A stretch of DNA of 64,000 nt, from positions 434,001-498,000 of the forward strand of contig NZ_CP123961.1 in assembly GCF_036327415.1 (NCBI RefSeq), in the 5' to 3' direction. The position numbers and the translations under genes are program-made. Of the stretch, positions 2,325 through 62,696 are shown one piece after another. The notes below the pieces were generated by a model. That model was not told the DNA's origin, made no database searches, and saw only the letters and a list, made by a program, of their open reading frames with translations. Within the stretch, counting starts at the first letter, position 1, and each line of letters begins with the position of its first letter. The DNA comes from Bartonella grahamii subsp. shimonis (GTDB lineage: Bacteria > Pseudomonadota > Alphaproteobacteria > Rhizobiales > Rhizobiaceae).

Positions 2325-3225
2325 CTTTATAACCTTCCTTTAAATATTACACATCTTTCGCATGATTTGAAAGAATATAAACTTAAGCAGTCACATTTGT
2401 TTTACCGGTGAAACAAAGGAGCCTATTTAATATTTTTATCAGTGTACGTATAGCTTGTTTTTTAATTTTTTATTTTTTACTTTGGTATTAAAATCCACTC
2501 CTTGCGATGGTTAACAAACCCCTTATTTTTTAATAAAAATGAATATCCAATTAATCATTCATATCAACAGTCTTGAAGAAAAGAAGCCTTATAATATAAG
2601 GCGTTAACAAGGCTAAAATAATCCATTAAAAATAATGAATATGATAACGCCATATTAGCGTTTCGCTAACATCAGAGCAAGATTTTTTTCAAAAGTCTCT
2701 TTAAAGCGCGTACTTTTCATAATTAAAGTAGAATACCCTCAAAAATACTATTATTCATTTATGTACTTTGTTACACAGACATTTTTAATAATTCTCAAAA
2801 CTCTCTTATGACGGTGCTCATGAAGAGTATATACTCTCCATGAATGGTATAAAATACATTATGCTCTCCATTTTTACTGAAATAGAAGGTACAAATCGAT
2901 GCCATCACACTCTTTTCCAGTTTTCAATGTGACGATAATGTTTGTATTGAGAGGATTCATAAAAGATATTTCACGCCTTTTTGAAAGTATTTTTATCCAT
3001 ACACCACCTCCGCTTATGACATATTAACATAACGATTTCAATTGATCCAATATGAATAGGATTAAAATGAGAAAGCCTCATGATATTTAGTTTTTTCACT
3101 CATGTTGTGAAACGATAAATTATCATTATACATCAATATATTGCTTTAATAAGAGAGAAAGCATAAAATTTTATATTATGCTTTCTTTGGCTGGCAAGTT
3201 TTATTAGCCTTAAAGTCAAGGAACA
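2325..3225. other. Non-coding gap with repeat
   Basis: I see no credible gene here. In related rhizobia trpF/trpB/trpA lie upstream of accD, and no trace of them was recognised. The right half (about 2690-3144) is a degenerate copy of dispersed repeat family B. The left part is AT-rich and unassigned. Confidence 0.7.
2690..3144 (+). repeat. Dispersed repeat family B, copy 1
   Basis: A degenerate copy in direct orientation. Recognisable parts in order are a double 'gaatggtataaaat' motif near 2840-2865, the 'tttttatccatacaccacc' block near 2990, a block like 'gatccaatatgaatagg' near 3043, and the conserved end ATAAATTATCATTATACATC near 3116. It ends about 80 nt from the 3' end of the minus-strand cysZ-like gene. 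Confidence 0.7.
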
Positions 3226-3945
3226 TTATTTTTGTGTAATGCGCGCCATGGTCTTTTGGGAAAGCATTTTGTGTAAATATGTCATAAAGGCGGCTGCAAA
3301 AAGCGGTGTTGCTAAATTAAGAATTGGAATCGAAACAAAAAGCGCTATCAATAATCCTGCACCAAAAACCGTTGTGTAATGAGTATGTAAAAAAGCACGT
3401 GCATCTTGCTCTGTTCGAAAACGATAAGCAGCAAACAAGAAATATTCATGACCAAGCAAATAACCATTAATAACATAAAAAGCAATTAAATTAATACCTG
3501 GTATGAAGAATAAAACAAAAGCAATTCCATTACCAAGAAGGCTTAAAATAACAAATTTAAAGGAAATGATAAGAGAACGCCGAAACGGCAAAGCTTGTCC
3601 AATAGGCTCGTTTGGATAATCCTCTTTTTCAATGATTTCAGCAGCAGAGTCAATGAAAAAACCACCAATCATAGCTGCGATTGGTGCAATAAAAAAAGCC
3701 AATAAAAGAACCAAACCAAGATTAAAAATGATAAGCATGCTAAAACCAATCCATCCTGCCCAACTAGGGAGTCCAGGAAAAAACTGAGCAATCCAGGGCC
3801 AAAAGTAAGACACAAAAAGTTGATGCAGACATAACCATAAAATGGCGAGAATGAAAAAAGTAACCCCCAATGCTTTCAGTATCATAATACTATATTGCGA
3901 GGTCAGAAGCCGTTGTAAAGCACGATAGGCAGCAGTAAAAATCAT
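3226..3945 (-). CDS. EI24/CysZ-like integral membrane protein
   Basis: This is a 239-residue inner-membrane protein of the EI24 (PF07264) type, the family of E. coli CysZ. Long hydrophobic segments are visible near residues 22-45, 62-95, 130-160 and 195-220, and a conserved-looking loop contains YLLGHEYF. CysZ in enterobacteria is linked to sulfate uptake, but alphaproteobacterial members are mostly uncharacterised and nothing around this gene points to sulfate. It stands alone between two repeat-rich gaps. Family membership is fairly sure; function is not. Confidence 0.8.
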   Translation of the reverse strand: MIFTAAYRALQRLLTSQYSIMILKALGVTFFILAILWLCLHQLFVSYFWPWIAQFFPGLPSWAGWIGFSMLIIFNLGLVLLLAFFIAPIAAMIGGFFIDSAAEIIEKEDYPNEPIGQALPFRRSLIISFKFVILSLLGNGIAFVLFFIPGINLIAFYVINGYLLGHEYFLFAAYRFRTEQDARAFLHTHYTTVFGAGLLIALFVSIPILNLATPLFAAAFMTYLHKMLSQKTMARITQK

Positions 3946-4629
3946 AGATTAATAAACTAAGGAAAGAAGCAAAAAAAACAAGAAATATATTTAAAGAATG
4001 TACGGTGTGATTTTTTCTTTTTTGAATTAAAGATTTCTTTTCAAGAACATTATAAAAAAACGGCTAAGAGCTTCTTTGTTTAAAATAAAGTTTGAGTAAA
4101 TAGAAATTTTGATTTTTAAAAACCAAGAAGAATTTAAAAAGCAGCTGTTATAGAAGAAATTTTTAATATTTTGTACAGAGTGTAGATTATTGCATTTGTA
4201 TGATATATGTGAAAAATTAAGGAATAAGAACTATTTGGGAGGAAAGTATTTATTCAGTAGAGTTGTCTAACTTCGTTTATCTATGTGCTTAATTGTTTTG
4301 CACAAATCCTAATATTCTGTACTTTTCTACTATTTGGCAACATGCTTTTGCCTCTGGCTTTTATTCAAAACAATATTGAGTTCAATGGAATAGGAGTAAT
4401 GTAGCAGCTCCGTAGATATTCTGATTTTGTGCAACAAAATGATTAATATGATAGAAGTGAAAAAATAGGCTTAGGCGATTGACCATCTATATCCCATGGA
4501 AGGGCAATTTCTTGAGAAGAAGCAAAGAGTGGGAGACACCACTGATGATTAAAAATGATGAAATTTTAAAAGCTATAAGTGCAACGAAGTAAGAATTCAT
4601 TGAAGCACTTTTCATACAAGTGGTGCACT

Positions 4630-4905
4630 GTATCAAATAATTTTTAGATAATGACACCGTTAATTTATGAAGAGAATTGATCATTTTCAACTTGAATAAG
4701 AATCCAAAATATAGAAATATTCTTTCATTTCTAAAGCCTCTATTCAACATCAAAAAATTATTTATTTGCACATTATAGGTGAGACCAATGTGTGGATACA
4801 AAGTTTTCGATAAAGGAACAAAAATGCTTCTCATGAAACATCACAATGTAAGGATATCATGGATCAAATTCTAGTCTTTGTGGGTCTTGGTAGGCTGGAG
4901 AGAGG
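4630..4905 (-). repeat. Dispersed repeat family B, copy 2 (inverted, partial)
   Basis: An inverted, weaker copy. 'ttttcaacttgaataagaat' near 4682 matches the equivalent part of the copy at 23653. 'ttatttgcacattatagg', 'gtgtggataca' and 'atgcttctcatgaa' follow in the expected order. Confidence 0.55.
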
Positions 4906-5052
4906 ACACACACCTTTAATCTTAAAGACCGATTACAGAGGAAAATAATAAAGGCGTCAGTTTCATAAACTGATAGACAGTGGTGCAATGAATTTTGTCT
5001 ACACTCTTTATGAGTATCAGTGTGAGATATGTTTCAAATTGCATTGAGATGT

Positions 5053-5380
5053 TATAATATATTGATTTATACATTATTTTACATAGTGAATAAGAGCCCC
5101 AAATAAAGTTGTCATATTTTCTTATTAGCGGCTCTTATCATGAAACAATCAAAATCATTTATTTGCACATCATAAATAGAACCAATATGGGGATAAAAAC
5201 ATTGAAGAAAGAAAATACTTTTTATAAATTTTATCCAGTGCAAGAGCTTTCTCAAAATTGATGATAGGTAAAATGAGTGATAGTTTGTTTTTTTTATAAG
5301 CTGGGGAGACAGTGGCGCAATAGATCCTACTTTTTTGCAGGTTAGGATGAGGTGGGATTTTTAAAGAAACATTTCCCAAC
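5053..5380 (-). repeat. Dispersed repeat family B, copy 3 (inverted)
   Basis: This copy starts with 'aatatattgatttatac', the reverse complement of the conserved family end. It continues with 'gaaacaatcaaaatcattta', 'ttgcacatcataa' and 'atggggataaaaac'. It abuts the direct copy that begins near 5395. Confidence 0.65.
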
Positions 5381-5394
5381 GCCCGTCACACCCA

Positions 5395-5740
5395 TTTCGC
5401 AACAGCGCCTGTGAATGGTATAAGGGTAAAGCTCTCGTGAATACTATAAAACTTATAGGGCATCACTATCTTTACGCTTAATAAAAGGGCACGCTGGTGT
5501 CACCATCTTCAGTGTTGCTCGACAGCCTTTGGTCCTTGAGACGGTCCATCATAAGCATTTTTAGTTCTTTCTTAAACGTTTTGTATTCATACGGCTATCC
5601 TTGTTTGCAACATGCAAGGCAAATGGTTTTGATTGATTCAACATGAGAGAGATTCGCAATGAGAGAATCATACGATATGCGGGATTCTAATTTAATATGA
5701 ACAACGCTAGATTATCATTATAAATCAAAATATTATATAC
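5395..5740 (+). repeat. Dispersed repeat family B, copy 4
   Basis: A direct copy with 'gtgaatggtataagg', 'gcatcactatctttacgctt', 'gcaaatggttttgattgatt' and 'gcaatgagagaatcatacga'. It ends with GATTATCATTATAAATCAAA near 5711. The end lies about 75 nt from the coaBC stop codon. Confidence 0.75.
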
Positions 5741-5814
5741 TAATCGAGATGGATAGACACCTATTGTAGTTCTATTTTATAAGGTGTTTTAATACCAACA
5801 CGTTTGAAGAGTTA

Positions 5815-7236: not shown

Positions 7237-7304
7237 AAAATACCTTCAAGAAATAAAATGATTGCAATGATTTCATTGTTGATATTTTTAGCATATTAAG
7301 GAGA

Positions 7305-8891: not shown

Positions 8892-8893
8892 TT

Positions 8894-9676: not shown

Positions 9677-9794
9677 GTGTATGACCTTCCTTATTTTTCT
9701 TTTATCGTAAATGAAATAAAGAGGGAATGTTCAAATACGAAAAAACAACGTATAAAACTGCGACATTTACACAGCTAAAAACAGAAGAGTATCT

Positions 9795-12230
<2,436 letters not shown>

Positions 12231-12379
12231 TTAGTCCATTCCTGTGTTCAATTTGCAATATCTTATCTGCTTTTTTAAAGCTTAACGTTCTGATCAGTTA
12301 TTTATGGAATAACCACATTAAACATTTACCGTATATCAGAACTATATTCAATATCTGTCGATATATAATGAAAAGAATG

Positions 12380-12665
12380 ATGAAATGAGATTGTACTGTT
12401 ATGTCGTAAAACTCCGTCATTGAGGGCGGTGATATGGTGATGTAAGGAAAGTAAGCACTTCCTTGATACATTAAGTATTTTTTAAGTGCGTGGTGAATAT
12501 TCGGAGCAGGGTTTATTTGTATAACCTTTAGTTAAGTGAATCGCATGAGTGAATAGCCCCGAGAAGTTAGTCGAGAGAAGCAGGATTGTTTAGACGCCAA
12601 GGCTAGTAGGAATCCTTTTCCTTTGAGAGGTGTGGGATATGGGGTCAATTAAGCTTTACAATTGT
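12380..12665 (+). repeat. Dispersed repeat family A, copy 1
   Basis: Matches the other family A copies in order: 'ggtgatatggtgatgtaagg', 'tacattaagtattttttaag', 'gtggtgaatattcggagcag', 'ttagttaagtgaatcgcatg', and 'aagcaggattgtttagacgc'. No open frame is conserved among the copies. Confidence 0.65.
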
Positions 12666-13249
12666 GCGAAGAGTGAAATTTTATTTATCGTGTCATGAGA
12701 TAATAATAATAAATTCTGATATTTTTATAAACACTTTTGATTTATACAAAAAGTTATTTCATAAAATGATGCTATTTATTTTGTTTATTTTTGCATATGC
12801 GTAATGTTTCAAAATTAGTTATGCATTTTTGTGTTACACTAACAAAGGTTTTACTTGTTTTATCCATAAATAAATTTTCAATTCTAATACTGCTGTACAT
12901 TTGAAATAAAAGTTACGAGCTCTCTAAGCAGCTCAAGCTTTTGTATGTTAGATTGAGGCGAAGATATTGTCTATATTGGTTTGTTTCATCTTTACAATGT
13001 GGAAAAAGCCTTGTTTGTGGAAAATAATAAAGGCATAAATGTAAAAACACGTTTCCACGATCGTTCTTTTATTCAGTTTTACAACTTTTAATAACGTCTA
13101 CAGCAATGTTTTTAAATAATGGGGGTAATGACGCATTGTCTTACGCTTTTGTTTTTCTCATTCCTGTAATGAAGATTACGTTCCTCATTTAAAACAAAGC
13201 ACCATTGCGCTGATATCCGCGCGCATTTTTAAGAAGCATCTCTCAATGT

Positions 13250-13595
13250 CTCAAAACTCATTTTACAACGATGTTTGAATAGTATAACGTAAAATACCCT
13301 GTGAATATTACAAGATACATGTCCTCTATCTTGCCCATTTTGACGATAAGGTGCAAATTAGCAGCAGCATTTTATTTTCCAGCTCTTAAATGTTGATGCA
13401 ACCTTAATGTTGAGAAAATCCTTGGCATTTGAAGGGTATTTTTACTCTTTTCTTTAACAGTATCTATATGCTCCCTCTGGTTGTGATATGCAAGAAAATG
13501 GTTTTGATGTTTTCAATATAAATAGATTTGAAATAAAGTTTTTTATTCACATAAGAAATAATAAATTATCATTACAAATTAGTATCTTAATATTT
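13250..13595 (+). repeat. Dispersed repeat family B, copy 5
   Basis: A direct, degenerate copy: 'gtttgaatagtataacgtaa', 'gcaagaaaatggttttgatg', 'ttgaaataaagtt', then the conserved end ATAAATTATCATTACAAATT at 13561. Unlike most copies it is not downstream of a gene 3' end. Confidence 0.6.
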
Positions 13596-14810: not shown

Positions 14811-14821
14811 TAAATAGTTTT

Positions 14822-23377: not shown

Positions 23378-23652
23378 AGATTGAATTTAAAAAAACACTC
23401 TCTTCGTTTTTTGTCCATTTCTAAGGCTGAAGAAGGAGGCATAGACCAGGAATCTATCAAAAAAGGAGCTTTTTGTTGAGACGCGAAGAGATATATCTGA
23501 AATATTCGATTTTTTATTTATAGCATTCTCTAAAGGGACAAAATTTTCACGAAGAATAGTATATTATTTTGCTGTTATATATTTATTTTAGAGAAATATC
23601 TTACCTTGTTCTCAAACTCATCTCGTGTTGTTGCCTAAAGAATGAAATGTAT

Positions 23653-23930
23653 GCAATATATTGATTTATAAAGATAATTTATCTTTATTCAACTTGAATT
23701 AGAACTTTGAATATCGTATGATTCTCTCATTGCGAATTTCTCTCATGTTAAATCAATCAAAACCATTTGCTTTGCCTGTTACAGGCGGGGAATCCTGTGT
23801 GGATAGAACTATTAAGAAATGACTAAAAATGCCTTTTATGAACCATCTCGAGAGCTAAGGGCTGTCGCAACACTAGGGGCTGGTAAAATAGTGTGAATGC
23901 TGCTGGCTTGTTACTCCATAAGCGTAAAGA
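23653..23930 (-). repeat. Dispersed repeat family B, copy 6 (inverted)
   Basis: Begins with 'gcaatatattgatttataaa' and 'gataatttatctttattcaa', then 'cgtatgattctctcattgcg', 'aatcaatcaaaaccatttgc' and 'tgtgtggataga'. It lies about 275 nt downstream of the tamB stop, oriented away from it. Confidence 0.75.
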
Positions 23931-23943
23931 TAAGGGGGCTTAA

Positions 23944-24123
23944 TGGGTTTATAGTTATACAATTCACGGACGTTATCGCGAAATGGGCTTTGGGAGAACT
24001 TTGAGAGAGGTCTCTTTAAAACAAACACCTGAATTTGCAACACAATGGCATTCTGTTTTTACGTGAAGGGCGTAATTCCATTAAAGAACGCGATAAACAA
24101 AAGCGTGAGGCAAGCGTAGAGTT
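23944..24123 (+). pseudogene. Phage integrase (P4 type) N-terminal fragment, decayed
   Basis: In the + strand frame starting at 23944 the sequence reads WVYSYTIHGRYREMGFG followed by EVSLKQTPEFATQWHSV. After a frameshift near 24055-24065 it continues LREGRNSIKERDKQKREAS. This order is that of the arm-DNA-binding N-terminal domain (DUF4102) of P4-type tyrosine integrases, whose members typically read W.YRY...GR.R.MGLG then SL..AR then L..G.DP...R. No start codon, catalytic domain or intact frame remains, and a stop codon (TAA, 23941-23943) lies just before it. It marks an old integrative-element insertion. No tRNA gene is adjacent. Confidence 0.7.
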
Positions 24124-24289
24124 CATAAGATATCGGTTTTATTTTTAAACGGATTTAAAGCAATATTTTTTAATAATAAAAATTACCTATTATTTTAGAT
24201 TTTTGTTTATTGTTTTTTTGAATGAGATTACTTTCCTTATAACGAATAGCCTCCAAACGGAACACTAGAAAAGATAACACTACAGTGTT

Positions 24290-24696
24290 GCAAATTCATT
24301 TGCTCGTTTTAAAGAAACATTCCTCAGTGTTGTGCTTGAGCCTATTTCATAAGATTGCTTGTGAAATGGTATAAAGTACCTTTTATGAATGGTATAAAAT
24401 CCATACTACCGTTATTAATAAAGGTATAAGTATTCATTAAAGATATAAGCCGGCATTATCATTCTATTTTTCAGCTTCTCATGTTGCCGACAATCTTTTC
24501 ACTTGAAAATGTAGAGGTATTTTTATTGCTTATCTTAAAAGCTTTTATGCATACACCAATATCTCTTATGACACGCAACAAGTACTTTTAATTGATTCAT
24601 CGTAAATATAAAGAAAATTTGCAATAAGCAAATTACATCTTATCTTTTATTTAAGATATAAAGTAATAAATTATGCTTATAAATCAAAGTATTAAG
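24290..24696 (+). repeat. Dispersed repeat family B, copy 7
   Basis: One of the longest copies: 'cgttttaaagaaacattcct', 'gtgaaatggtataaagtacc', 'gaatggtataaaatccatac', 'ttttatgcatacaccaatat' and 'ttatgacacgcaac', ending ATAAATTATGCTTATAAATC at 24666. It lies downstream of the minus-strand ABC exporter. Confidence 0.75.
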
Positions 24697-27405: not shown

Positions 27406-28001
27406 GAAATGCTTCTATATTCTCTCATTATTTTATGCAAGATTGGAACACTCTTAATTAAAAAGTCCCTTAATCTTTTTTACAAAAATAACCTTTTGTT
27501 TCAAGGTTCATCACATCAATTTCACGACGGCGAGAGTGAAGAATGTAGTGCAAAGTTTCGGTGAAAGGTACAACGAAAATTCATTGTTCATCATTATTTT
27601 TAGTTTTCAATAAAAGGTACCGGCGAGTTTCACCATTATATTTACCAATTTCCATATTGTGATAGCCTTTGGCATTTGAAATGATTCACAAAAAATACTT
27701 CTGCTTTTTTAATAATTTTTATGTATCATCTCTATTTGTGATGTATAAGCAAACAATTTTGCTGTATTGCATGAGAAGAGAGCTTGAAATGAAAAGATCT
27801 TACGATGTTCGAGCTCTCTCATTTAAGATGCAAAATAACGAATTCTTTTTATAAATCGATAAAGCATTATTAGACTCTTAAAAGGATTTATACACATTTA
27901 TAAAACCCTAAAAGCACCACAAAAATTCTATGTGGTACTTCTAAATAATGCTATACACATCATTTTGATGAGTTGCATGCAAATATTATTCCAACGCAAA
28001 A
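27406..28001. other. Intergenic region with repeat
   Basis: About 600 nt between the exporter start and the infC stop. The part 27650-27860 is a family B copy. The rest is AT-rich with no recognisable gene; small open frames here overlap the repeat. Confidence 0.65.
27650..27860 (+). repeat. Dispersed repeat family B, copy 8 (degenerate)
   Basis: Degenerate direct copy: 'ggcatttgaaatgattcaca', 'acttctgcttttttaata', 'cgatgttcgagctctctcat', 'ttataaatcgata'. It lies about 140 nt downstream of the minus-strand infC stop. Confidence 0.5.
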
Positions 28002-31709: not shown

Positions 31710-31975
31710 ATACCTTTATCTTGTTGTGCCATAAGACATTGCCATTTGAGATGTGGTGATATGAGACACGTAAGACTTAATATATTAAGTGGTTTTAGAG
31801 TAAGTGGTGAATATTCTTAAGTTGGGTTCTTGCCTGTAGAGCCTTTCGTTAAGTGAATTACATAATTGGAAAGCCAAGAGGGACCTGCTTTAAGAAGCAG
31901 AACTTTTTACAGACTGTATTGGATTAAAAATATTCGTTCTTTAAAGTATAGAAAGGAAGTCAACATGCAATCATA
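31710..31975 (+). repeat. Dispersed repeat family A, copy 3
   Basis: 'cttgttgtgccataagacat', 'tttgagatgtggtgatatga', 'aatatattaagtggttttag', 'agtaagtggtgaatattctt', 'ttcgttaagtgaattacata' and 'ctttttacagactgtattgg' follow in the same order as in copies 1 and 2. It starts about 25 nt after the dapE stop. Confidence 0.7.
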
Positions 31976-32914
31976 TATGGAAAACAATGAATACTATATC
32001 GCAATTGTGTGATGACAGGTTGAAGCCATAAAGATATACAAAAATATATTGCTATTGTAAAAAGTTCGTACAGCATAAATGTGCTCATTCACGGTTTATG
32101 CCTTAATATGGTTTCTGCACTCTCATAAAGGTACTTCTTGTTTCAATTAGCTTCTCTTAGAGTAAAGCCCATAGGAATGCGCTTTAAGTTTGTTTTATTT
32201 CATATATTTTTCCCTGCTTTTTTTGTTTTCAAGAACTTTCGTTGCAAAATCATTATGAGATAGAAGGTGAGCTTATTTACTCAGCTTTAATATTGGTTAT
32301 GATAAAGATACACAAAAATTCTTTTGTAGCAGCACGTTGACTTCTTTAGTCAAGGATTGCCCTGGTATTATTCTTTTTAATAAAATAATCTTAAAGGGCG
32401 CGTACAGATACTCATAAGCATGTACGCATACAAGTAAGATTATATGGGATTAATGTCATTTCGCTCGCTAACAAAGCAATCTCGATTCATATTTGGTATA
32501 TTTGCCATTTTAAGTGCATTATTTTTTAATAAAGCTCATGATTTTACTCTGACCTATAAATCAATACCAATCATACAGCCGCGTATCTCAAATAAATATT
32601 GGTTCAGTATTTTTTGCGACAACAGCCTTTACATGCCAGAATAGGATAAAAGTATTGTGTATATCTATTTTTGTAATCTCTGAAGCAGACATACAACCAC
32701 AACCTCACTGAGGGAAAAGGTATAAAGGTAAAAATCAGCGTGCTTTTTTACTCTCTTTTTTTATTTTGCTTTACGGTTTTCAAAAGTATCTAGAGTAATA
32801 TCTTTTTAAATAATCAGAGATTAATGCATAGTTTCATGCTTATTTCTCTAGTTCTTTAAATTGTGCCACGATTTCATAAAGAACAATACATTATTGTATT
32901 ATGCATTCACATAC

Positions 32915-33292
32915 TTGTTTTAAAGAAGTTTTCTCAATGTTTGTCACATTCATGCTACTACGGTGCTTATAAATAGTGCAATATAAAATTTTCCGTGAAA
33001 TGTACAAGATCTATAGTGCCTCACCATCTTTATGTTTATGAAAAAGAAAGTTAGACCACCATACACTTTCTAGCTCAAAATATTGCGCTAGCTTTTAGTA
33101 CTTAAGAGTATTCATAAGAGGCATTTACTCCTTTTTTATAGTTTTTATCCGCACGCTTCCCTACTTTTAAGATGTAAAAAAATGGTGGTAACTAATTTAC
33201 TATAAATAGTTTTGAAATGAGAGAATCTCACGATATTCTAATCTTGATTTTGCTATGAAAAATGATAATTATAATTAAAATCAGTATGTTGT
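32915..33292 (+). repeat. Dispersed repeat family B, copy 9
   Basis: 'tgttttaaagaagttttctc', 'gtgcaatataaaattttccg', 'gcctcaccatctttatgttt', 'ttttgaaatgagagaatctc' and 'acgatattctaatcttgatt' are recognisable. The copy ends within 15 nt of the hemW stop codon. Confidence 0.7.
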
Positions 33293-33302
33293 TGTAAAAA
33301 CT

Positions 33303-34502: not shown

Positions 34503-35146
34503 GAGAATGCTAAAAGGTTTTCTGCCAAAAGTTTGAAAGCACGTGCGCGATGTGAAAGAGGGGGAATATCATTACGTTTCCAGTTGTGTTTTTGCTCTGT
34601 TGACATTTCTCCAAAGGTATTTTCACATCCATCTGGTAAAAAAATAGGATCAAAACCAAAGCCTTTGTCTCCCCGTGGAGGCCAAATGAATGTTCCTTCA
34701 ACGCATCCTCGGAAGTAATCTGCGTGGGCATCAGGCCATGCAATGCAAATGACGGATATAAAACGGCATTTTCGTTGGCTTTTTTCTTGCGCTCCGACTT
34801 TTTGGAGTTCATTTTCTATTTTTTTCATAGCTTTTGGAAAATTGCGTGTACCATCGGCTTGAATCGCCCAATCGGCGGTATAAACGCCTGGCGCACCTTC
34901 CAATGCATCTATTTCTAAGCCTGAATCATCAGAAAGGGCAGGAAGTCCTGTCTTTTTTGCTGCTGAAAAGGCTTTAATATAAGCATTTTCTTCAAATGTT
35001 TTTCCCGTTTCTTTTGGTTCTGGCAAGCCTAGTTCTTTTGCCGATTGTATTATTAAACCGAAAGGCGCAACCAAAGTAGTGATTTCATGCAATTTGCCGG
35101 TGTTATGTGTAGCAATGACAAGTTTTTTATCGGCTATACTTCTCAT
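34499..35146 (-). CDS. rdgB: XTP/dITP pyrophosphatase
   Basis: RdgB cleaves non-canonical purine triphosphates (dITP, XTP) to monophosphates, keeping them out of DNA. The 215-residue protein has the family signatures [14 protein letters not shown] near the N-terminus, [40 protein letters not shown] and LSHRARAF. It is the first gene of the rdgB-hemW pair. In rhizobia rph (RNase PH) usually lies between rdgB and hrcA; here that space is 524 nt of non-coding DNA with a family A repeat. Confidence 0.96.
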
Positions 35147-35670
35147 ATAGATTTCTCCAAAAATGAAAGAGGAACTATTTTTGTGCTAAAACCAACATAA
35201 ATGCTCACATACATTCTACTCAATTTTACATGATATGATTATTTTACACGTTTTATGATATTTTATTCCAATAAAAATTTTTTATCTTGTGTGAAGATAA
35301 TTTTGCAAAGATATAAAAGGCACACCTTCTTTATAATAGCATTTTTATGGTAAATTTCCAATTTCCTACTTGCTCTAAAGGGTGAAATTTTCTATCCGTA
35401 GCGGTTTGTAAACAATCCAGATTCTTTTGATCAAATTCTCTTGGCAAGTTCCTACAGCAGACCACTTTACAGATCAACTCTTATCTTAAATATTTCTCAC
35501 ATACTCTAACAAAAAATACCTCCTGCGTAATTTATCAATCATCACTCTGAAAGGTAGCATTTTATGGCTCAATAGGATAATATATTTTTATACTACTTTA
35601 GACTATTTGACCAAACCTTGGCAAAACTTATATAAGAGATGAGTATTTTAAAAGTAGTGAAACAATTGTG
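35147..35670. other. Intergenic region between divergent rdgB and hrcA
   Basis: No gene. Holds an inverted family A copy (about 35335-35580). No inverted repeat of CIRCE type (TTAGCACTC/GAGTGCTAA) was seen before hrcA. Confidence 0.65.
35335..35580 (-). repeat. Dispersed repeat family A, copy 4 (inverted)
   Basis: Read on the minus strand it shows 'cctattgagccataaaat', 'gagtgatgattgata', 'ttgttagagtatgtgagaaa', 'ttgccaagagaatttgatca' and 'aagaatctggattgtttaca', matching copies 1-3 in order. Confidence 0.6.
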
Positions 35671-44185: not shown

Positions 44186-44907
44186 TGATTTACCCTCCTT
44201 CATAAGATTCACACTTTGAATGTTTTTTTATTTTAGCAGAACTTTTATTTAAAATAAAAGAAAGAAATGCTAAAATGAAATTGATTTGAATATGAGAATA
44301 AAAACCATAGAATTCTTAGATTTTAAAGGAAGACAGTAAGGTTTACAATGACAACACACCTCTCAATACTTCCGTGTTCATCTTGCAAAAGTATTTGTAA
44401 ATGGTATAAAATCTATGATGTACTACCATTTTACTTAAAAAGATATAATACAGAACAAACATTAACCACTTTACCAATTTTTAATATTACGACAGCTCTT
44501 GGCATTTTAAAAAGCTTTTACATGAGTATTTTTTATTAATGATGGGCAGATCAAGAGCGAAAGAGCAATCACTCTTTTATTTTTTAATTTTTATAGAAAG
44601 ATATATTTGTTGAGAGTTGCAAGAAAAATATATTATGATCTCAAGTCTCTCATAAATATGGTATTTATGGGTCATTAGAGCGCTTATTTTAAAATAAATT
44701 TTTTATTTTGGAGATGTTTCTCTCATTATTCTCTTGTAGCAATAAAAGCCTGTTCTTATATACGAGGCAGCAAGGCTTATTGCGACTTGCAATTTGTTAT
44801 TATTTTATGTTGCTTGAAGCAATATACGGGCTTTGAGTGTTATGAGGAGCTGTCTTAAAAAGATGCTTTATGAAGGTTGAGGTAGCTTGCTGAATGGAGA
44901 TTATAAT
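44186..44907. other. Intergenic region upstream of dnaK
   Basis: About 720 nt. A short stretch near 44345-44440 ('gtaaatggtataaaatctat', 'gatgtactaccattttac') resembles the middle of family B. A hairpin AAAGAG/CTCTTT followed by T-rich sequence lies at 44560-44585 and could end a small + strand transcript. The dnaK promoter (expected heat-shock type) must be here; I could not assign it with confidence. Confidence 0.5.
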
Positions 44908-46957: not shown

Positions 46958-48100
46958 ATGAAGGTTGACTATTATGAAATTCTTGGCGTGACTCGTGAAT
47001 GTGATGATAAAAAATTGAAATCTGCTTTTCGCAAGTTGGCAATGCAATATCATCCTGATCGCAACGCTGGGGATAAAGAGGCAGAGCGAAAATTCAAAGA
47101 AATTGGCGAAGCCTACGAAGTCCTTAAAGATCCCCAAAAGCGTGCTGCTTATGATCGATTTGGTCATGCGGCTTTTGAAAATAGCGGTAGTCAAAGAGGA
47201 GCAAATCCCTTTGGAGGTTTTGCTGCTGGTGGTGGATTTGCTGATATTTTTGAAGATTTTTTTGGCGAAATTATGGGAGGTGCGCACCGTAAGCGTGGTG
47301 ATGGTCGCGAACGTGGTGCAGATCTGAGTTATAATATGGAAATAACCTTAGAAGAGGTATTTTCAGGAAAAACTGCAGAAATTACTATTCCCAGTTCTGT
47401 TACGTGCGATGTTTGTGAAGGATCAGGAGCGAGAAAGGGCTCTAAGCCACAAGTTTGTGGAACATGTCATGGATCTGGTCGTGTGCGTGCTGCACAAGGT
47501 TTCTTTTCCATTGAGCGGACATGTCCTTCATGTCATGGACGTGGTGAAACTATTACGGATCCATGCCCCAAATGTAAGGGGACACGACGCATAGAGAAAA
47601 AACGTTCATTGAGCGTAAATATTCCAGCTGGTATTGAAGATGGAACGCGTATTCGCCTTTCTGGTGAGGGTGATGCTGGTATTCGTGGTGGACCCAATGG
47701 TGATCTTTATATTTTCTTTTCCGTTAAACCGCATGAATTTTTTCAGCGAGAAGGAGCAGATCTTCACTGTCGCATTCCTATTTCAATGGTAACAGCTGCT
47801 TTAGGAGGAGAGTTTGAAGTTTCCGATCTTGATGGTGTTAAAGCGCGTGTTAAGATCCCAGAAGGGACACAAAATGGACGTCAATTCCGCCTTAAAGGCA
47901 AGGGTATGCCCATGTTGCGTCGGCAGCAAGCAAGGGGTGACCTTTACATCCATATCACGATTGAGACACCACAGAAACTAACGCAAGAGCAACGTGAACT
48001 ATTGCAAAAATTTGAAAAACTTTCAAATCACGAGAATTCACCACAATCACATGGCTTTTTTTCACGTATGAAAGAATTTTTTGAAAATATTTCTGGTTAA
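46958..48100 (+). CDS. dnaJ: Chaperone DnaJ (Hsp40)
   Basis: DnaJ delivers substrates to DnaK and stimulates its ATPase. The J domain (residues 1-70) has YHPDRN with the HPD triad, then a Gly/Phe-rich linker ([17 protein letters not shown]). The cysteine-rich zinc domain has four CxxCxG repeats ([32 protein letters not shown]), followed by the two C-terminal beta domains. An adjacent ATG at 46955 would add one methionine; 46958 matches family starts. Downstream is 1.9 kb of non-coding DNA. Confidence 0.97.
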
Positions 48101-49997
48101 AATATGTGAATGTTCTCAGAATAGATTAGAAAAAACTTTTGGAAAGTTATTTTAATTAAACTTTCTATAGTCTTATCATCTTTGAAAAGCATTTTTTCTT
48201 GAAAAGAAAAGAGAGAAACGATTAATTGAGGGTAAGTTCCTGTCGTTGATAGTTTTTTACATTTCACGAAGTTTTATGGGTAAGTCTTATTTTTGAGTGT
48301 CTATGATATTTAAAAAAGGGCTTATCCGTAAGAAAGATGCAATTGAGTGACTGATTTCCAGTGTCATGATAACAGCTTTTATGCATTCAGCATTTTTTGT
48401 ATTTATTGTTTTACTCAAAATTCCTTTTTAAAAGCCCTATACTAAAACTGTAAAATAGGTAGTAGCTTACCAAGAAATGCTAAATAGCTATTAGACAATC
48501 CATCTTATTTCAAATAAAATATCAATTCCTCATAACCAATTTATTTTTGGAATTTTTGATAGTTTTAACTACTGTCTCCCTTTAAATAAGGGGTATTTTA
48601 TTCGGAATAGCTTTTACATGCCTTATACCAGCTTCATTTTCTTTTAGATTGCGGATTTTGTTTTGTATTTCTGGTGTCATAAAATACTTCTTCCAGATAA
48701 TAAAAAACGCTATAATCAGATTTATTTTATTCCAAAGAAATTATGAAATGAGATGGTGCATGTTGAATGCTAAAGAAGACATAGCAAAATATGTCTTGAG
48801 ATGCTTGATACATCTCTCTTTTGGAGAAACAAATTCGATGGAATTCACCTAGTTGAATTTATTGGCATGATAAAAATTTGGTGGGGAGAAAAAGGGAGTT
48901 ACTTTCGAAAAGAAAAATAAATACAATAAAAAAATGGCACGATATGCTTAAAAAACAGCACGATATATTGTCCAAATTGATAGTGATATGGAAAGAGAAA
49001 TTCACGAAGTGAATCTTTTTCATAAAATAACATAATTAAAACAATATATTAAGAGAATTAAAAAATTCTAAAAGACATTGAAGAATTTAAGCATGTCTTG
49101 CTGTGCAGAAAGAAAAATTTAATGAACAGATCGTAAAAATGAAAAAGTTTATAAAACTTTACGAAGATAGCAATCTAAACAATTAAATGTTTTTATAAAG
49201 GTGCTTCTAGAGAGCGTTAAGAGCTATTCGCAATAAATTTAAAGGATATGATAATGTTCTATAACAAGATATTATAGATAGGTGTGAGGATTATACTGTA
49301 GCGTATTTCTTTTATTATCTTTTATATGGATTGATGTTGTCTGATTAAAGACAGTAATTAATGGGATATAAAAGCAGAATTTACTTGTATCGTAAAATTT
49401 TAGTAGAATCCTTCAGAATTCTTTTAAAAATTTCTTATTAAGCTGTTAGAGAGGTTTCTTATTCGGATTTCGGAACAGTTTCAATTATCATGAAGACAGT
49501 TAGCATAAAGGAACCATCGTATAGCTTTACGGATCTCTTCTAGAAAATTTCTTGGATAAGTACAGTGCTAAGTCAATTTATCTTGGTGATGTGTTAATTT
49601 TATTATTATAAGAAAATTTTGTTTTATCTTACAAAATCAATAGTTGTATATATTCCTATTCATTGTTAAGTATTCATAGGCGTAAACTAATGAGTTGAAT
49701 ATACGGCGTAGCTTTAAATTTTTCAGAATTTTGCTTTTCAATTTTATACATAAATTCATAAAATTTTTATACATAAATTCATAAAATAATGACGTTTTGC
49801 ACGCCTGTATTGTTTAATTTTTCGCTGTCAATTTTTTGAGGAAGTTGTTTTCTTGTTCATCTCGTTGTTACATTTTCGTAATTTAAAGGAAAATTGACGA
49901 TTTTTAGGGGATGGATAGAGTAAAGCTTTGTTTTATTGTTTTCACTTTTCCTAAATTTCACTAAGAGATGGTAAAAAGTGGTGAGGAGGCTCTATTA
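48101..49997. other. Long gap with decayed sequence after dnaJ
   Basis: About 1.9 kb without an intact gene. A 34-codon stretch at 48934-49035 reads as coding-like sequence (GCACGATAT repeated; ARYIVQIDSDMEREIHEVNL) but contains an internal stop. A 23-bp tandem repeat sits at 49742-49786. No clear family A or B copy was found. The frame at 48649-48852 has no support and is not called. Confidence 0.6.
49742..49786 (+). repeat. 23-bp tandem duplication
   Basis: TTTTATACATAAATTCATAA plus three further bases occurs twice with a 23-nt period. Non-coding. Confidence 0.9.
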
Positions 49998-51851: not shown

Positions 51852-52677
51852 CTATGTATTTTTTCTATTATGATTTTATTGTGTGAGATTTTTGCTTGCA
51901 AAGTTTTCATTTTTGAGGTTTTTTTAAATATGAAGATAAGGAGGCTCTATAAGCTATTCCAGCTTTTGTATACAAATTTGAGCAATAGTATCTGTTTACT
52001 TAACCTCTGAAACGGGAAGCCGCCTTTCATTGAGTCAAAACATGAAGTGGTAAAGATAAAAATCAGCTCTCATCTTTACTTTAATTTTTAAATTCGGCTT
52101 TACAATGTTCAAAAACATCTAAGATGATACCTAATGGGGATTTTGCATTGCCGCACCTTATGCCTTTTGTTTTTTAATTGAGTTAAGCTCTTCAAGCAAA
52201 ATAGAACACACAAAGCAGCTTGCAATAATACAGCAATGAATTGATTTATAATGATAATTTATCTTTATTTATATTGAGTTAAAGACCCGAGTAGCGTCAG
52301 ATTCTCTCATTTTAAATCTGTTTATCTTGAATCAGTTAAAATCATTTTCTTGCACACCACAAGCGGGTGGCCATGTGTTAAAACTGTATAAGAAAGGCAT
52401 GCTTCTTATAAGCTCTTTTAAGTGCCAAGGAATTTCACAACCATTGGAGGCTTGCAAAGTTTGTGATGGTACCAGCTTATCCAGCCTATGAGTCATCAAA
52501 TAAGATGTGAAAAGATTATTTTAGTCCCTTTGGTATTTAATTTAGTAAACAAAAGCCTTATTTTTAGGCTACAAGAAGTTGTGTTTTGAGAAGCTCTTGA
52601 GGTGTATATTCTTTTGAAAGAGGCCGAAACATAATTGGTCTTTGCGTTTTGTATTATTCTTTGCTAAATCGCCTTAT
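51852..52677. other. Intergenic region with repeat before lepA
   Basis: About 826 nt. An inverted family B copy occupies about 52232-52460. The lepA promoter must lie to its right. No gene recognised. Confidence 0.65.
52232..52460 (-). repeat. Dispersed repeat family B, copy 10 (inverted)
   Basis: Starts 'agcaatgaattgatttataa' then 'tgataatttatctttattta', followed by 'cgtcagattctctcatttta', 'gaatcagttaaaatcatttt' and 'cttgcacaccacaagc'. It lies about 380 nt downstream of the EamA gene stop, conserved end first. Confidence 0.75.
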
Positions 52678-54483: not shown

Positions 54484-55055
54484 TGAAAAAAGAAGTATTT
54501 TCTCTCATTGATTACGCTTTTGCTTTTGTCGATTAGTTCAGTTTTTAAAGAGCAGTTTTAAATGGAGATTGTAAAGTATTTCATGCTTTTGTGTATTGCA
54601 TAATAGTGTCGTATTTCTCACGTAAAACAAAATATTTTAAACAAAATACATTTGTGTTGCACGTTCACGTTCTTATTTTAAAGAATCATTTTTCACTGTA
54701 TCAAGCTCCATTTTATAATAGGGATCCTGAAAGGTATAATGTAAAATCGATAGTGAATGATATAAAACCCACCATTTGGCATCACCCTCTTTACACCTCA
54801 TAAAGGTTTACCCATCATATTCTTTTCCAGTTCAAAATGTTATGATAGTCCTCGGCATTTGAGAGAATTCATTAAAAACATTTTTACTCTTTTATTAAAG
54901 TGTTTTTTCCCCACACACCAACTGCATTTGTAACGTGCAAGGAAATGAGAGTGATTGATTCACCATGAAAGGATTTGAAATGAGAGAATCCTTGTATTTG
55001 AGGGTGTTATTTAAGTTAAATAAGGATAAATTATCATTATAAAGGAATATTGTGT
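54484..55055. other. Intergenic region between convergent lepA and dapD
   Basis: About 570 nt, mostly one long family B copy (about 54650-55050). No gene recognised. Confidence 0.7.
54650..55050 (+). repeat. Dispersed repeat family B, copy 11
   Basis: A long direct copy: 'cttattttaaagaatcattt', 'gaaaggtataatgtaaaatc', 'gtgaatgatataaaacccac', 'ggcatcaccctctttacacc', 'gattgattcaccatgaaagg' and 'atttgaaatgagagaatcct', ending ATAAATTATCATTATAAAGG. The end is about 15 nt from the dapD stop. Confidence 0.8.
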
Positions 55056-55904: not shown

Positions 55905-56010
55905 GACGAGAGTTCCGTTAAACAAGTTGAAAGTTTCAAGATTTATTCTCTATGGACTACGCGAAGAAATGTGTTCAGTCAATAAAACGATGAAGAAGTA
56001 GGACAGGTGT

Positions 56011-56874: not shown

Positions 56875-56906
56875 CAACTTTTAAGACGTTCACTTTTGAA
56901 GGAGAA

Positions 56907-57650: not shown

Positions 57651-57651
57651 C

Positions 57652-58581: not shown

Positions 58582-59117
58582 TACAAAACTGTTTCCTGCA
58601 TGTTTTTTTCTTTTGCGCGTTTTTTAAATTTTCGTATCACCATATCGCGTTTGATCTTTGAAATGTAATCAATAAAAAGGCGCCCATCTAAATGATCAAT
58701 TTCATGCTGCAAGCAAGTTGCCAAGAGATCGTCTGCTTCAATTTCTGTTTGCTTTCCTTCACGGTTCTGATAGCGAACACAAAGGCGTTTAGGACGTTCA
58801 ACCTCTGCAAAATAGTCAGGAATAGAAAGACAACCTTCTTTATAAATATTACGCTCATCTGAAAGCCATAAAATTTCAGGGTTGATAATAACAAATGGTT
58901 TTTTCTGCTCATCTTCAGAATTTCTAGAGACATCTATAACCAACATACGTAGCGGTATACCAATTTGAATAGCAGCAAGACCAACGCCCTTAGCATTATA
59001 CATAGTTTCCAACATATCATTCGCAAGTTTTTGGAGAGCTGAATCGACCTGCTCAACGGGTTTGGACACTTCTCGTAAAATCGGATCAGGTAAAGTAACT
59101 AAAGATCTCATTGGCAT
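58581..59117 (-). CDS. def: Peptide deformylase
   Basis: This metalloenzyme removes N-formyl groups from new proteins. At 178 residues all three motifs are seen: [11 protein letters not shown] (motif 1), [11 protein letters not shown] with the metal cysteine (motif 2), and [13 protein letters not shown] with HExxH (motif 3). It is the first gene of the def-fmt-truA operon and is divergent from rmuC with about 90 nt between starts. Confidence 0.97.
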
Positions 59118-59207
59118 AAGTAGAGATTAATCAATGGTTTGTTATTGGTCAATATTGAATAACGGATTCTTACGCTTTTTTACGATAAGAGCGTTATATT
59201 ACAATTT

Positions 59208-60389
59208 ATGTTTGATTCGTTTTTTTCCATACTCGCAGATGAGTTTTTTTCTAAATTAATGCTTTTGCTTTTATGTATACTTGTCTGTTTGGCATTTTTT
59301 ATGCTGATACATTCTCATCGAAAAAAAACATTGTGGGAAAATGAAACTGCTGAACGCGCGCGTGAAGCACAAATGCAGATGGCTATTTTGCTGAAAACAC
59401 AAGCTGAAATGCAAGGGCGAATGCAAACGATGGCAGAAATTTTTGGTCAACGGCAAGCTGAATTGAATAAATCACTCAGTGAGCAACTCAATGGGATGAC
59501 AACAAGCTTAGGCCAAACACTTCAGGTACAGACCAAATCCACTTATGAAAATTTGAATCGTTTGCAAGAGCGTTTAGCAGTGATTGATGCGGCACAAAAT
59601 AATATTCAATCGCTTACGGGACAAGTTGTTCAGTTGCAGTCTATTTTAAGCAATAAGCAGACACGTGGTACTTTTGGTCAAGGGCGGATGGAAGCCATTA
59701 TTGCCGATGCCTTACCAACAAATGCTTATGCTTTTCAGGCTGTTCTTTCCAACGGAAAGCGCCCAGATTGTCTCATTCATATGCCTAATAAAGCACCGTC
59801 TCTTGTTGTTGATGCTAAATTCCCTCTGGAGGCTTGGAATGCTATGCGTAAGGCAGAATCAACGCAAGAGCGTCAAGAGGCAGAACGCCAATTTCGTACC
59901 GATATGGAAGTCCATATCCGTGATATTGCGCAAAAATATTTGATTCCTGGAGAAACCCATGACACTGCTTTTCTTTTTGTACCGTCGGAATCAATTTTTG
60001 CAACAATTTATGAGGATTTTGAGCCATTGGTACAAAAAGCCAATAGAGCCCATGTAATTATTGTTTCACCGTCTTTGTTGATGCTCTCTGTTCAAGTTGT
60101 CCAAACCATTATGAAAGATGCGCGGATGCGTGAACAAGCGCATTTAATTCAATCAGAAGTAGCAAAATTGATGGAAGATTTTGGACGAATGGATATGCGT
60201 GTTCGCGCACTACAGAAGCACTTTCACAAAGCCGGTGAAGATATAGAGGGAATTTTAATATCGTCATCCAAAATTATGAAACGGGCAAATCGCATTGAAA
60301 CTATCGAATTAAAGGAAAAGTACTCTGAATCAACAAAAATGGCAACATCGGCTCAATCGCAAACATTGCGTTTTGCTGATGAGGAATAA
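59208..60389 (+). CDS. rmuC: RmuC-family DNA recombination protein
   Basis: RmuC family members carry a restriction-like nuclease fold and limit inversions at short inverted repeats in E. coli. The 393-residue protein has an N-terminal membrane segment (about 14-32, LMLLLLCILVCLAFFMLIH), a long coiled coil (about 40-140) and the conserved domain with RGTFGQGRMEAIIAD and LVVDAKFPLEAW. The final residues are basic/acidic and less conserved. Given the many inverted repeats in this window, its presence is noteworthy, but a link is only inference. Confidence 0.92.
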   Translation: MFDSFFSILADEFFSKLMLLLLCILVCLAFFMLIHSHRKKTLWENETAERAREAQMQMAILLKTQAEMQGRMQTMAEIFGQRQAELNKSLSEQLNGMTTSLGQTLQVQTKSTYENLNRLQERLAVIDAAQNNIQSLTGQVVQLQSILSNKQTRGTFGQGRMEAIIADALPTNAYAFQAVLSNGKRPDCLIHMPNKAPSLVVDAKFPLEAWNAMRKAESTQERQEAERQFRTDMEVHIRDIAQKYLIPGETHDTAFLFVPSESIFATIYEDFEPLVQKANRAHVIIVSPSLLMLSVQVVQTIMKDARMREQAHLIQSEVAKLMEDFGRMDMRVRALQKHFHKAGEDIEGILISSSKIMKRANRIETIELKEKYSESTKMATSAQSQTLRFADEE

Positions 60390-60500
60390 AGCAAAGCAAG
60401 CTTCTTAAATATCACAGGTCAGATCATGTTCTTTATTGATTGGTAATAGTTTTTTAGTATCTCTATCTTGTTTTATTTCTTAAACGAGAGGAATAGGGAT

Positions 60501-61088
60501 ATGCGACACCTTTTGTTTTTAGGGGCACTGGTGTTTCTGCTAGAGGGATGTGCAACAACTACTCCCATATACACAAACAATGCTTGTGCTATTTTGGCGC
60601 AAAAAAATGGTTTTTTTAACAATTGGGGTAAGGCATCTAAACGTGCAGAAATGCGTTATGGGATTCCTATGCCTATTATTCTTGCAACCATTAATATGGA
60701 ATCGAGCTTTCGTCACAATGCACGTCCTCCACGTAAAAAACTACTTGGTTTTATTCCATGGAAGCGTCGATCGACAGCCTATGGTTATTCTCAAGCGCTT
60801 GACAGTACATGGGCAATGTATCTTCGCTCCACGGAAAAGTCTTTTGCATGGCGTACGAATTTTGCAGATTCTGCTGATTTTGTTGCTTGGTACCATCGCC
60901 AAAGTGTTCAACGCAATGGTGTGAGGTTTGATGATGCCTATAGCCTTTATTTAAATTATCATATGGGACATGGTGCTTATGCACGTAGTGGTGGGCATGC
61001 CAATGCTGCACTTTCACAGGCAGCACAGCGCATGGCAAGAATATCGAGGCTCTATGAACAGCAGTTAAAGAGATGTGGATGGCGTTAG
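60501..61088 (+). CDS. Transglycosylase SLT-like lipoprotein
   Basis: An envelope lipoprotein of 195 residues. The signal sequence MRHLLFLGALVFLLEGC ends in a lipobox with the acylated cysteine at residue 17. The rest resembles a short SLT lytic transglycosylase domain: catalytic-type glutamate in ATINMESSFRHNARP, then AYGYSQALDSTW and YLNYHMGHGAY. It would cleave peptidoglycan glycan strands from a membrane-anchored position. The ATG at 60501 follows GAGAGGAATAGGG; the upstream ATG at 60468 adds a non-signal leader. It follows rmuC by about 110 nt. Confidence 0.85.
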   Translation: MRHLLFLGALVFLLEGCATTTPIYTNNACAILAQKNGFFNNWGKASKRAEMRYGIPMPIILATINMESSFRHNARPPRKKLLGFIPWKRRSTAYGYSQALDSTWAMYLRSTEKSFAWRTNFADSADFVAWYHRQSVQRNGVRFDDAYSLYLNYHMGHGAYARSGGHANAALSQAAQRMARISRLYEQQLKRCGWR

Positions 61089-62696
61089 AAAGGATTCTGA
61101 AAGTCTTAATCAGGGAATTGTTGTGGTAAAATTATTTGAGAACCAAATTTCTTATAGTGTGGTAAGGCTGTATTGTTTTTCCGGTTGTCTAACAAAATAA
61201 ATTGTTATTGAATAGAATAAACTCAAGCGACAGAAAGCTTTTGCAAAGCACAATATATTTGAACGCACTCTCGATATTTTTACCTCCTTTGTTAAAAGAA
61301 TTTACAATGGAAACGATCTTCTATTTGGTGCTGGCATTTAGCGCTGGATGAAATACCAGAGATTGTTGAAGAGAAATTTTTAAAGCTAGTATCTTTTTTA
61401 TTTTCACAATGCGTATTAATGGCGGATTATTACATGAATATTTTCTTTGTTAAGCGTATAAAATAGCAATTAAAAACAAATGCAATTCGAGCATTGTAAA
61501 AAAACATTCAATATAAAAAACGAGAAATACATTAAAGGAAAGAACATTACTTCATAAAACATTGCTTTGTAGGGGCAGCTATATTCCTCAAAAAGACTAA
61601 TAGTATTTAATATTGTATGAAATGAAGCATGTCCATTCATCTTGTTTGTCCATCTTAGTTGAAAGACGTTATCTTATTGTATTGTAAAAACACTATCGTT
61701 TATAGGATGGTAAGATATATGCAATTTTACACACAATGAATATTCAGGGTAGGGAATATTCAGAGAAAGATTTGTCTGTAGCGCTTATGAAGTAACAAGT
61801 CATCCTCCAATGTTGTGATAGTTTTTGTATTTGAGAATATTTATGAGAAGCATTTTTATTCTTTTCTTAAATGGTTTACAGCATATTGATTTATAAAGAT
61901 AATATATCGTTATTCATATTAAAGTAAGAATCTCGAATAGCGTAGGGTTTTATCGTTTTAGATCTCTTGAGGTTGAATCAATAAAAACAATTGGCATGCA
62001 CATAACAAGCACAATTGGCATGGGGATAAAAACTGTGAAAGAAAAGACTAAAAATATTTCTTATGAACATTCTCAAATGTAAGAATTATAGGCAACATTG
62101 GAAATTAGCACGTATAATGATGGCGCCACTTTTCTCTCACACCTCAACTTTGCTTGTGGCGTGCAAGGAAACAAAATTAATAGATTCAATATACTATTTA
62201 AGCGTTAATATACCTTAGTATTAAGCAGGTAGATGCTACTTAAGGTGGTTAATTTTTAATTGGAAGGACATCTGATTAGGCTGAAAATACTCGAAAAAAG
62301 TTCTGATTCGCAATAATTGAGAAGTATATTTTAATATTTTATTTTCTAATCTCTGTTGAGGTACTTCGTACCTTTTAAAAAGATATCGGTAACTAACATA
62401 TTATGATTTTGTGGGAATGTTGTGGTAAAGGGAATTCAAATTTTATCCTTTAAAACAAGGCGTAAGTTAAACAGCTCATTTTCTATTTCTGTGCAAAGCA
62501 TAAAAAATTATCTACTTTCACGGTTACGACAGTAAAATTTTATAACCCAACAAACAATTAAAGATATATTATAATATCATTAAAACGTAAGGAACAGGCG
62601 CTATTGAAACGATGATTAAATAGCACATAAACCTTTTAAATTGATGCACACATTCTCTATCACAATTAATTCTCTTGATAGAATAACTGGTCCTTT
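61089..62696. other. Long non-coding gap before tRNA-Ala
   Basis: About 1.6 kb. The centre (61790-62180) is made of a partial direct and a longer inverted family B copy joined back to back. A 57-codon frame at about 61305-61470 has no start codon and no recognised relatives. The rest is AT-rich. Confidence 0.65.
61790..62180. repeat. Dispersed repeat family B, copies 12a/12b (back to back)
   Basis: 61790-61865 reads as a direct piece ('ttgtgatagtttttgtattt', 'gagaagcatttttattcttt'). From about 61872 the inverted copy starts ('agcatattgatttataaaga', 'taatatatcgttattcatat') and runs on through 'gttgaatcaataaaaacaat' to 'tgatggcgccac'. Confidence 0.65.

What the first reader, a model, noticed from the sequence alone, without database searches (positions are those of the whole stretch)
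2690..62180. Family B: a long degenerate repeat placed downstream of genes in a fixed orientation
At least twelve copies, up to about 400 bp each, fill the gaps. All share the same block order and an AT-rich terminal motif. Direct copies follow minus-strand genes (cysZ-like, coaBC, ABC exporter, infC, hemW, dapD), and inverted copies follow plus-strand genes (tamB, eamA, the lipoprotein). In each of these the conserved end faces the gene's stop codon, sometimes within 15-80 nt. Exceptions are copies 2, 3 and 5. I do not recognise the family. Such a bias suggests a 3'-end function (termination, RNA stability, an RNA domain) or insertion targeted to gene ends, followed by decay.
Basis: partly seen in the sequence, partly recalled or inferred. 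Interest (0 to 1): 0.75.

Follow-up and report, generated by a model that had tools for sequence, protein, structure and literature searches.

The report
Decayed ends of a promiscuous integrase element
The repeat is the worn-down front end (attachment site, leader and start of the integrase gene) of a small mobile DNA element that has inserted at well over a hundred places in this Bartonella genome, and it looks like debris of past insertions rather than a signal at gene ends.

Summary
The family is real: 12 full copies plus fragments in the window, at least 150 in the genome (capped), and matches in 42 of 61 genus genomes, this one included. Read on the other strand it is the leader and 5' part of a tyrosine-integrase pseudogene; the AT-rich motif is the attachment-site end, where homology stops. 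Other Bartonella carry intact copies of the source element. Two were delimited (15.3 and 15.6 kb); 8 nt are shared by both ends and the empty site. Its genes include int, an AlpA-like regulator, primase, DUF3987 and a type ISP restriction enzyme. Relatives show empty sites. The orientation rule fails genome-wide: same-direction gaps 27 against 32 (p=0.60); copies favour convergent gaps (54 against 8 divergent). Copies diverge about as fast as synonymous sites and share no RNA fold, so no 3'-end function is indicated. Unexplained: left ends far outnumber right ends (4 right-end matches here), and 95 of 131 left ends stop 200-450 nt in.

The parts
2838..3148 (-). Family B copy; junction end 3148, 78 bp from the stop of the CysZ-like gene (3226-3945 -); strand = direction in which the int relic reads
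   Evidence: left.hmm 7-322, E 1.2e-35
4658..4853 (+). Family B copy, junction end 4658 (exception: faces a gene start)
   Evidence: E 1.9e-27, 4.4e-23
5054..5280 (+). Family B copy, junction end 5054 (exception: faces a gene start)
   Evidence: E 4.4e-32
5358..5741 (-). Family B copy downstream of coaBC; orthologous in related genomes
   Evidence: E 2.8e-64
12832..13589 (-). Family B copy with int body, reaching model position 781; divergent gap (exception)
   Evidence: E 5e-71
23650..24134 (+). Family B copy with int body, model 8-491
   Evidence: E 4.8e-108; int match at 23896-24113
24143..24694 (-). Family B copy, model 13-510, junction end 24694
   Evidence: E 1e-30
27517..27862 (-). Family B copy between infC and the MsbA-like exporter; own gap 596 bp against 223 and 212 bp in two relatives
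32048..33295 (-). Family B copy 8 bp from the hemW stop: leader plus most of the int gene relic (model 8-1305); own gap 1617 bp against 99 and 102 bp in two relatives
   Evidence: E 2e-88
51941..52209 (-). older int fragment (model 398-685), 20 bp from the junction of the next copy (read as a nested insertion)
52229..52479 (+). Family B copy, junction end 52229, downstream of the EamA-like gene
   Evidence: E 2.2e-45
54561..55053 (-). Family B copy abutting the dapD stop; own gap 572 bp against 66 bp in two relatives
   Evidence: E 2.4e-55
61782..61877 (-). Family B fragment, head to head with the next copy
61875..62128 (+). Family B copy, junction end 61875
   Evidence: E 1.1e-35
62130..62192 (-). 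Family B fragment
   Evidence: E 8.4e-07
44466..44526 (-). weak Family B fragment, doubtful: its gap is not longer than in relatives
   Evidence: E 6.5e-05; gap 674 bp against 660 and 756 bp

Best explanation
Each copy is the left end of a 15-kb integrative element that inserted by tyrosine-integrase recombination and then decayed. Anatomy from host inwards: an attachment half-site next to ATTGATTTATAATGATAA, a leader of about 180 nt, then the 5' part of int reading away from the junction. Shown: homology to int, intact source elements elsewhere in the genus, both junctions of two elements (8 nt shared by left end, right end and empty site), empty sites in relatives, near-neutral divergence of the relics at two loci. 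Inferred: the integrase accepts many short overlap sequences and so inserts widely, also inside genes; insertions between two promoters or in needed genes are lost by selection, so surviving relics collect behind gene ends, most of all in convergent gaps. The terminal motif stands out because active elements must keep it, whereas leader and int drift between element lineages (inferred).
For: PF13356 and int-body matches lie flush against Family B copies, e.g. 1592285-1592500(+) beside 1592063-1592281(-). Homology starts at one point and fades into int. Ints of this kind: 43 of 61 genus genomes match at E<=1e-20; G036 has 38 matches, of which 20 in the (truncated) listing have a stop-free frame of 384-395 aa. 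Elements 779632-795209 and 761832-777134 of G036 were delimited against uninterrupted copies of their host sequence. Own gaps with copies are longer than in both relatives in 8 of 8 comparable gaps (a ninth could not be compared); 4 of 6 large gaps counted as copy-free are equal within 82 bp. hemW 3' end: copy in all 15 best-matching genomes (this one included), in none of the next 15 examined. Leader divergence 0.24 against 0.21-0.22 at 4-fold sites at two loci. Convergent 54, divergent 8, same-direction 27 and 32.
Against: Decay of whole elements should leave right ends as often as left ends. Of 131 own left ends 110 stop before model position 500 (107 if colinear pieces are chained), 95 of them between 200 and 450, far from random over 15 kb. 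DUF3987 has 0 tblastn hits in the 499 kb against 60 for int, though these stretches were chosen around left ends. Two large gaps without a copy are also longer in the own genome, and the two relatives used for gap lengths have 2 and 3 leader matches of their own in the same 75 kb. The terminal motif is slightly less divergent between orthologues (0.16 against 0.21-0.22) over only 24-26 sites.
Confidence: 0.87

Rival explanations
1. Short left-end pieces (about 250-450 bp) are mobile in their own right: non-autonomous units with the attachment end, moved in trans by the integrase of full elements, so most copies never were 15-kb insertions.
For: Excess of left over right ends; 95 of 131 truncation points fall at 200-450, with several near model 264 and 430; well-preserved short left ends exist in G036, e.g. 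2642815-2643075.
Against: No shared sequence was seen by eye beyond the truncation points listed, and the masked comparison showed no second high-copy family; ends may bunch because local alignments stop after conserved blocks; some relics hold most of int, e.g. 32048-33295. Comparison of one short G036 copy with relatives was not decisive.
Confidence: 0.15
2. A functional 3'-end element (terminator, RNA stability or RNA domain) kept by selection behind genes.
For: 9 of 12 window copies face a stop codon; of 24 classed copies with the junction within 100 bp of a gene, 21 lie at a stop and 3 at a start (100-aa setting).
Against: 27 against 32 in same-direction gaps (32 against 31 with a 150-aa ORF limit); leader divergence at or above 4-fold sites; RNAalifold predicts no pair on 28 copies; z-scores 0.73 and -0.13 for one copy; 15 of 30 genomes examined at hemW do without it.
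Confidence: 0.04
3. Integration targeted to 3' ends of genes, as many tyrosine integrases use tRNA or gene ends.
For: Several window junctions lie within 80 bp of stops. The hemW copy is in the same place in 15 genomes, but that is best read as one inherited insertion.
Against: In 15 of 41 well-preserved left ends an open frame of at least 100 codons runs through the junction, one of them in a phage tail gene; the host side of the junction carries little information beyond A+T richness; both delimited elements interrupt sequence that occurs elsewhere in G036 without them.
Confidence: 0.06

Closest known systems
PICMI-type phage satellites (PMC10803314, passages seen)
   Same: int, AlpA-type regulator and DUF3987 primase together; defence genes as cargo; small integrative element
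   Different: About 15 kb; many copies at many sites per genome, whereas the PICMI prototype sits at fis; alphaproteobacterial host; packaging by a helper phage unknown
Tyrosine-integrase genomic islands and prophages (P4-type integrases; label recalled)
   Same: PF13356 arm-binding, PF22022 and PF00589 catalytic domains; left end next to int; short overlap shared by both junctions
   Different: The overlap differs between the two delimited insertions, and about twenty intact int copies are listed in one genome
[quoted passage not shown]
   Same: Multi-copy 10-28 kb segments with integrase genes in the genus
   Different: The passages read do not mention dispersed short leader relics; whether the flanking integrase is this one was not tested
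Tn916-like promiscuous integrative elements (recalled)
   Same: AT-rich, loosely chosen targets and a variable short overlap
   Different: No conjugation gene among the ORFs scanned

Membership tests
Tyrosine-integrase integrative element | Integrase with arm-binding and catalytic domains at one end of the element | tested here: met
   PF13356 59.5 bits, PF22022 40.4 and PF00589 41.5 in L268:7339-8502; leader directly upstream of int
Tyrosine-integrase integrative element | Short identical overlap at left end, right end and empty site | tested here: met
   CGCTCCAA for element 1 and TGCATCAA for element 2
PICMI satellite | int, alpA (PF05930 or PF12728) and primase (PF13148 or PF19263) together | tested here: met
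   PF12728 28.2 bits over cut-off 27 (the NCBIfam excisionase model stays below its cut-off, 18.1 against 28.8); PF13148 267.7 bits; model definition
PICMI satellite | Integration next to fis (optional in one passage of the paper, mandatory in another) | tested here: inconclusive
   Only some left flanks were examined; one is a tail gene; no flank was searched for fis
PICMI satellite | Packaged and spread by a helper phage | not testable with these tools
   Needs induction and particle sequencing
Structured intergenic RNA or palindromic repeat | Conserved secondary structure or known RNA family | tested here: not met
   0 pairs predicted on 28 copies; z 0.73 and -0.13 for one copy, both strands; Rfam search at gathering thresholds gave only a tRNA
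Gene-end targeted repeat | Orientation fixed relative to the upstream gene in same-direction gaps | tested here: not met
   27 against 32 copies, p=0.60; 24 against 26 with one copy per gap

The most novel reading that the evidence does not exclude
A tyrosine integrase in Bartonella spreads one-sided or truncated left-end units: short pieces with a single attachment end that insert without a right end, giving well over a hundred solo ends per genome, a MITE-like behaviour that I do not know for this enzyme class.
Probability: 0.15. Interest if true: 0.75.

Novelty: new variant of a known kind. Interest (0 to 1): 0.48.

Why it matters
It explains part of the long non-coding gaps of this genome (the 150 leader matches alone cover 34.4 kb, 1.6%) and gives insertion scars that can be dated across the genus. 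It points to an unusually promiscuous, multi-copy integrase element that carries restriction systems, and it removes a false lead on 3'-end signals. The excess of left ends over right ends is an open question that can be tested.

Tried and rejected
RNA or terminator function: Rfam, RNAalifold and single folds, divergence test: rejected. A right-end repeat family of similar copy number near the left ends: masked all-against-all, orphan core scan with 9 orphans against 1, 3 and 4 in three simulations, right-end profile in own stretches, 1 hit: not found. Element-in-int insertion as the general cause of truncation: 4 of 45 well-preserved and 8 of 130 decayed left ends lie within 20 bp of element DNA: too few. 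Precise boundary of a short recent copy in G036 by relatives: not decisive. Named survey with hemW: of 80 loci kept one is a Bartonella record. Plasmid collection searched with one leader: no match. Literature: eight searches; no listed title or abstract start names this repeat; only passages of PMC2697382 and PMC10803314 were read, the other papers were seen as listings only.

Rows dropped: the orientation test used 130 of 153 leader hits (score at least 60 and reaching model position 230); 6 of these lay at stretch edges and 3 in gaps over 4 kb, leaving 121 (100-aa setting). A first pass without masking int relics gave 28 against 36 and 54 against 6. The divergence test at hemW used the 15 of 30 loci that carry the copy; at coaBC it used 13 of 19 loci, then 12 after dropping L299, whose copy is disrupted. 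Intragenic test: 41 of 45 well-preserved left ends could be used. The weak fragment 44466-44526 was not counted as Family B.
Full report
WHAT WAS CHECKED. The repeats exist. Direct and inverted matches with a shared block order appear in the window, and nhmmer with one copy finds the others. With a profile grown from 28 genome copies (alignment A1) the window holds 12 full copies and 3 fragments, one of them weak; the reversed sequence of the whole 499-kb set gives none.

WHAT IT IS. An iterated profile extended the family to about 370 nt, and its reverse strand reads like the start of a tyrosine integrase. In the same genome an Arm-DNA-bind_3 match at 1592285-1592500(+) lies flush against the Family B copy 1592063-1592281(-), and another pair sits at 1382601-1382801(-) and 1382805-1383027(+). 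The int region of the first gives 54 matches genome-wide. Its two open pieces, searched apart, match PF13356, PF22022 and PF00589. The two int regions are almost identical, but their first 60 nt or so of leader are not. Family B is therefore attachment end, leader and int 5' part.

COPY NUMBER AND SPREAD. A sequence-only model of the leader gives 150 matches at E<=4e-14 in the own genome; 150 is the scoring cap. Of 52 exact copies of the terminal core TTATAAATCAAT (control 0), 41 lie in that list and 11 do not; 9 of the 11 were fetched and 6 of them carry a leader in the right place. This suggests about 170 copies or more (inference). In the genus sample 42 of 61 genomes, this one included, match at E<=1e-6.

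THE SOURCE ELEMENT. Searching the C-terminal int piece finds matches in 43 of 61 genomes; G036 has 38, of which 20 in the truncated listing have a stop-free frame of 384-395 aa. Two G036 elements were delimited because other copies of their host sequence are uninterrupted: 779632-795209 and 761832-777134. At element 1 the 8 nt CGCTCCAA occur at the left end, the right end and the empty site; at element 2 TGCATCAA does so. The overlap thus differs between the two. Genes seen in another copy (L268): int 388 aa, an HTH_17 regulator of 68 aa, a Zn/toprim primase in two frames, DUF3987 (267.7 bits) and a 1679-aa type ISP restriction-modification enzyme; towards the right end lie beta-solenoid repeat proteins. 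No capsid or tail gene was found among the element ORFs scanned; not every ORF was scanned. In the phage collection the best integrases are about 41% identical.

INSERTION SHOWN BY EMPTY SITES. A B. vinsonii contig is syntenic with window 19.6-44.3 kb and has no copy. At the hemW 3' end the 15 best-matching genomes all have the copy and the next 15 examined have none; this looks like one old insertion inherited by a clade (inference). Two more relatives show gaps of 99 and 102 bp (hemW/dapE, own 1617), 66 and 66 (dapD, own 572), 223 and 212 (infC, own 596). The own gap is longer than in both relatives in 8 of 8 comparable gaps with copies; a ninth could not be compared. Of 6 gaps of 250 bp or more counted as copy-free, 4 are equal within 82 bp and 2 (35146-35668 and 48100-49968) are also longer in the own genome. 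The two relatives have 2 and 3 leader matches of their own in the same 75 kb.

ORIENTATION. Of 130 copies, 121 could be classed: 54 convergent, 8 divergent, 27 same-direction with the motif at a stop, 32 with it at a start. Same-direction gaps show no preference (p=0.60; one copy per gap 24 against 26; with a 150-aa ORF limit 32 against 31). Convergent against divergent is strongly uneven (p=1.7e-9). In the window 9 of 12 looked like a rule partly because five lie in convergent gaps, where either orientation faces a stop.

FUNCTION OF THE COPIES. At hemW (15 genomes) and coaBC (12 genomes) the leader diverges by 0.241 and 0.237 per site, against 0.22 and 0.206 at 4-fold sites; the int part diverges by 0.305 and 0.286; the terminal motif by 0.165 and 0.16 over 26 and 24 sites. 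No common RNA structure on 28 copies and no unusual fold of one copy on either strand. The copies look unselected.

WHY BEHIND GENES. In 15 of 41 well-preserved left ends from other genomes an open frame of at least 100 codons runs through the junction, against 4 of 130 decayed copies (Fisher p=1e-7). Decay of the interrupted gene itself would also lower the second figure. The simplest reading is broad insertion followed by survival where nothing is lost.

WHAT REMAINS UNEXPLAINED. Left ends outnumber right ends: own genome 43 (capped) against 4 at 3 places, G036 40 against 25, G017 43 against 20, G050 45 against 17. Of 131 own left ends 110 stop before model position 500, 95 of them at 200-450, several near 264 and 430, with no shared sequence seen beyond. 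Nested insertion accounts for only a few. Some copies keep most of int, such as 32048-33295, so not all are short from birth.

NOVELTY. Integrase elements and their relics are known, and an int-alpA-DUF3987 set defines PICMI satellites (passages). About twenty intact int copies in one genome and well over a hundred solo left ends in another form an unusual variant. Eight literature searches named in Tried and rejected listed no title or abstract that describes this repeat; the library misses most subscription papers.

Noticed in passing
window 12431-12558, 31721-31877: A second, rarer dispersed repeat (about 70% alike); similar-looking stretches at G000 409136-409368 and 202414-202633. It has no match in the G036 stretches that hold the element ends.
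   Followed up: partly
G000:C1:2096926-2098558: Int fragments arranged in a tandem array (repeated matches to int positions 577-865).
   Followed up: no
window 48101-49967: Gap twice as long as in two relatives (1867 against 900 and 836 bp) without any Family B copy.
   Followed up: no
G000:C1:1381400-1382801 and 1592285-1593684: Twin int pseudogene regions nearly identical over about 1.4 kb while their leaders differ, which hints at gene conversion or recombination between copies.
   Followed up: partly
L268 (G036:C1:1712158 onward) and L281:3925-4851: Left flank of this element is a phage tail gene and an MFS gene fragment lies at its right end, which suggests recombination between element copies.
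   Followed up: no
L047 (G000:C1:34756-35996): Minisatellite-like array of GTAACTTGCCAGC-type units.
   Followed up: no
window 27880-27960: By eye, the infC gap keeps a terminator-like hairpin between the gene and the Family B junction, in part shared with relatives.
   Followed up: no
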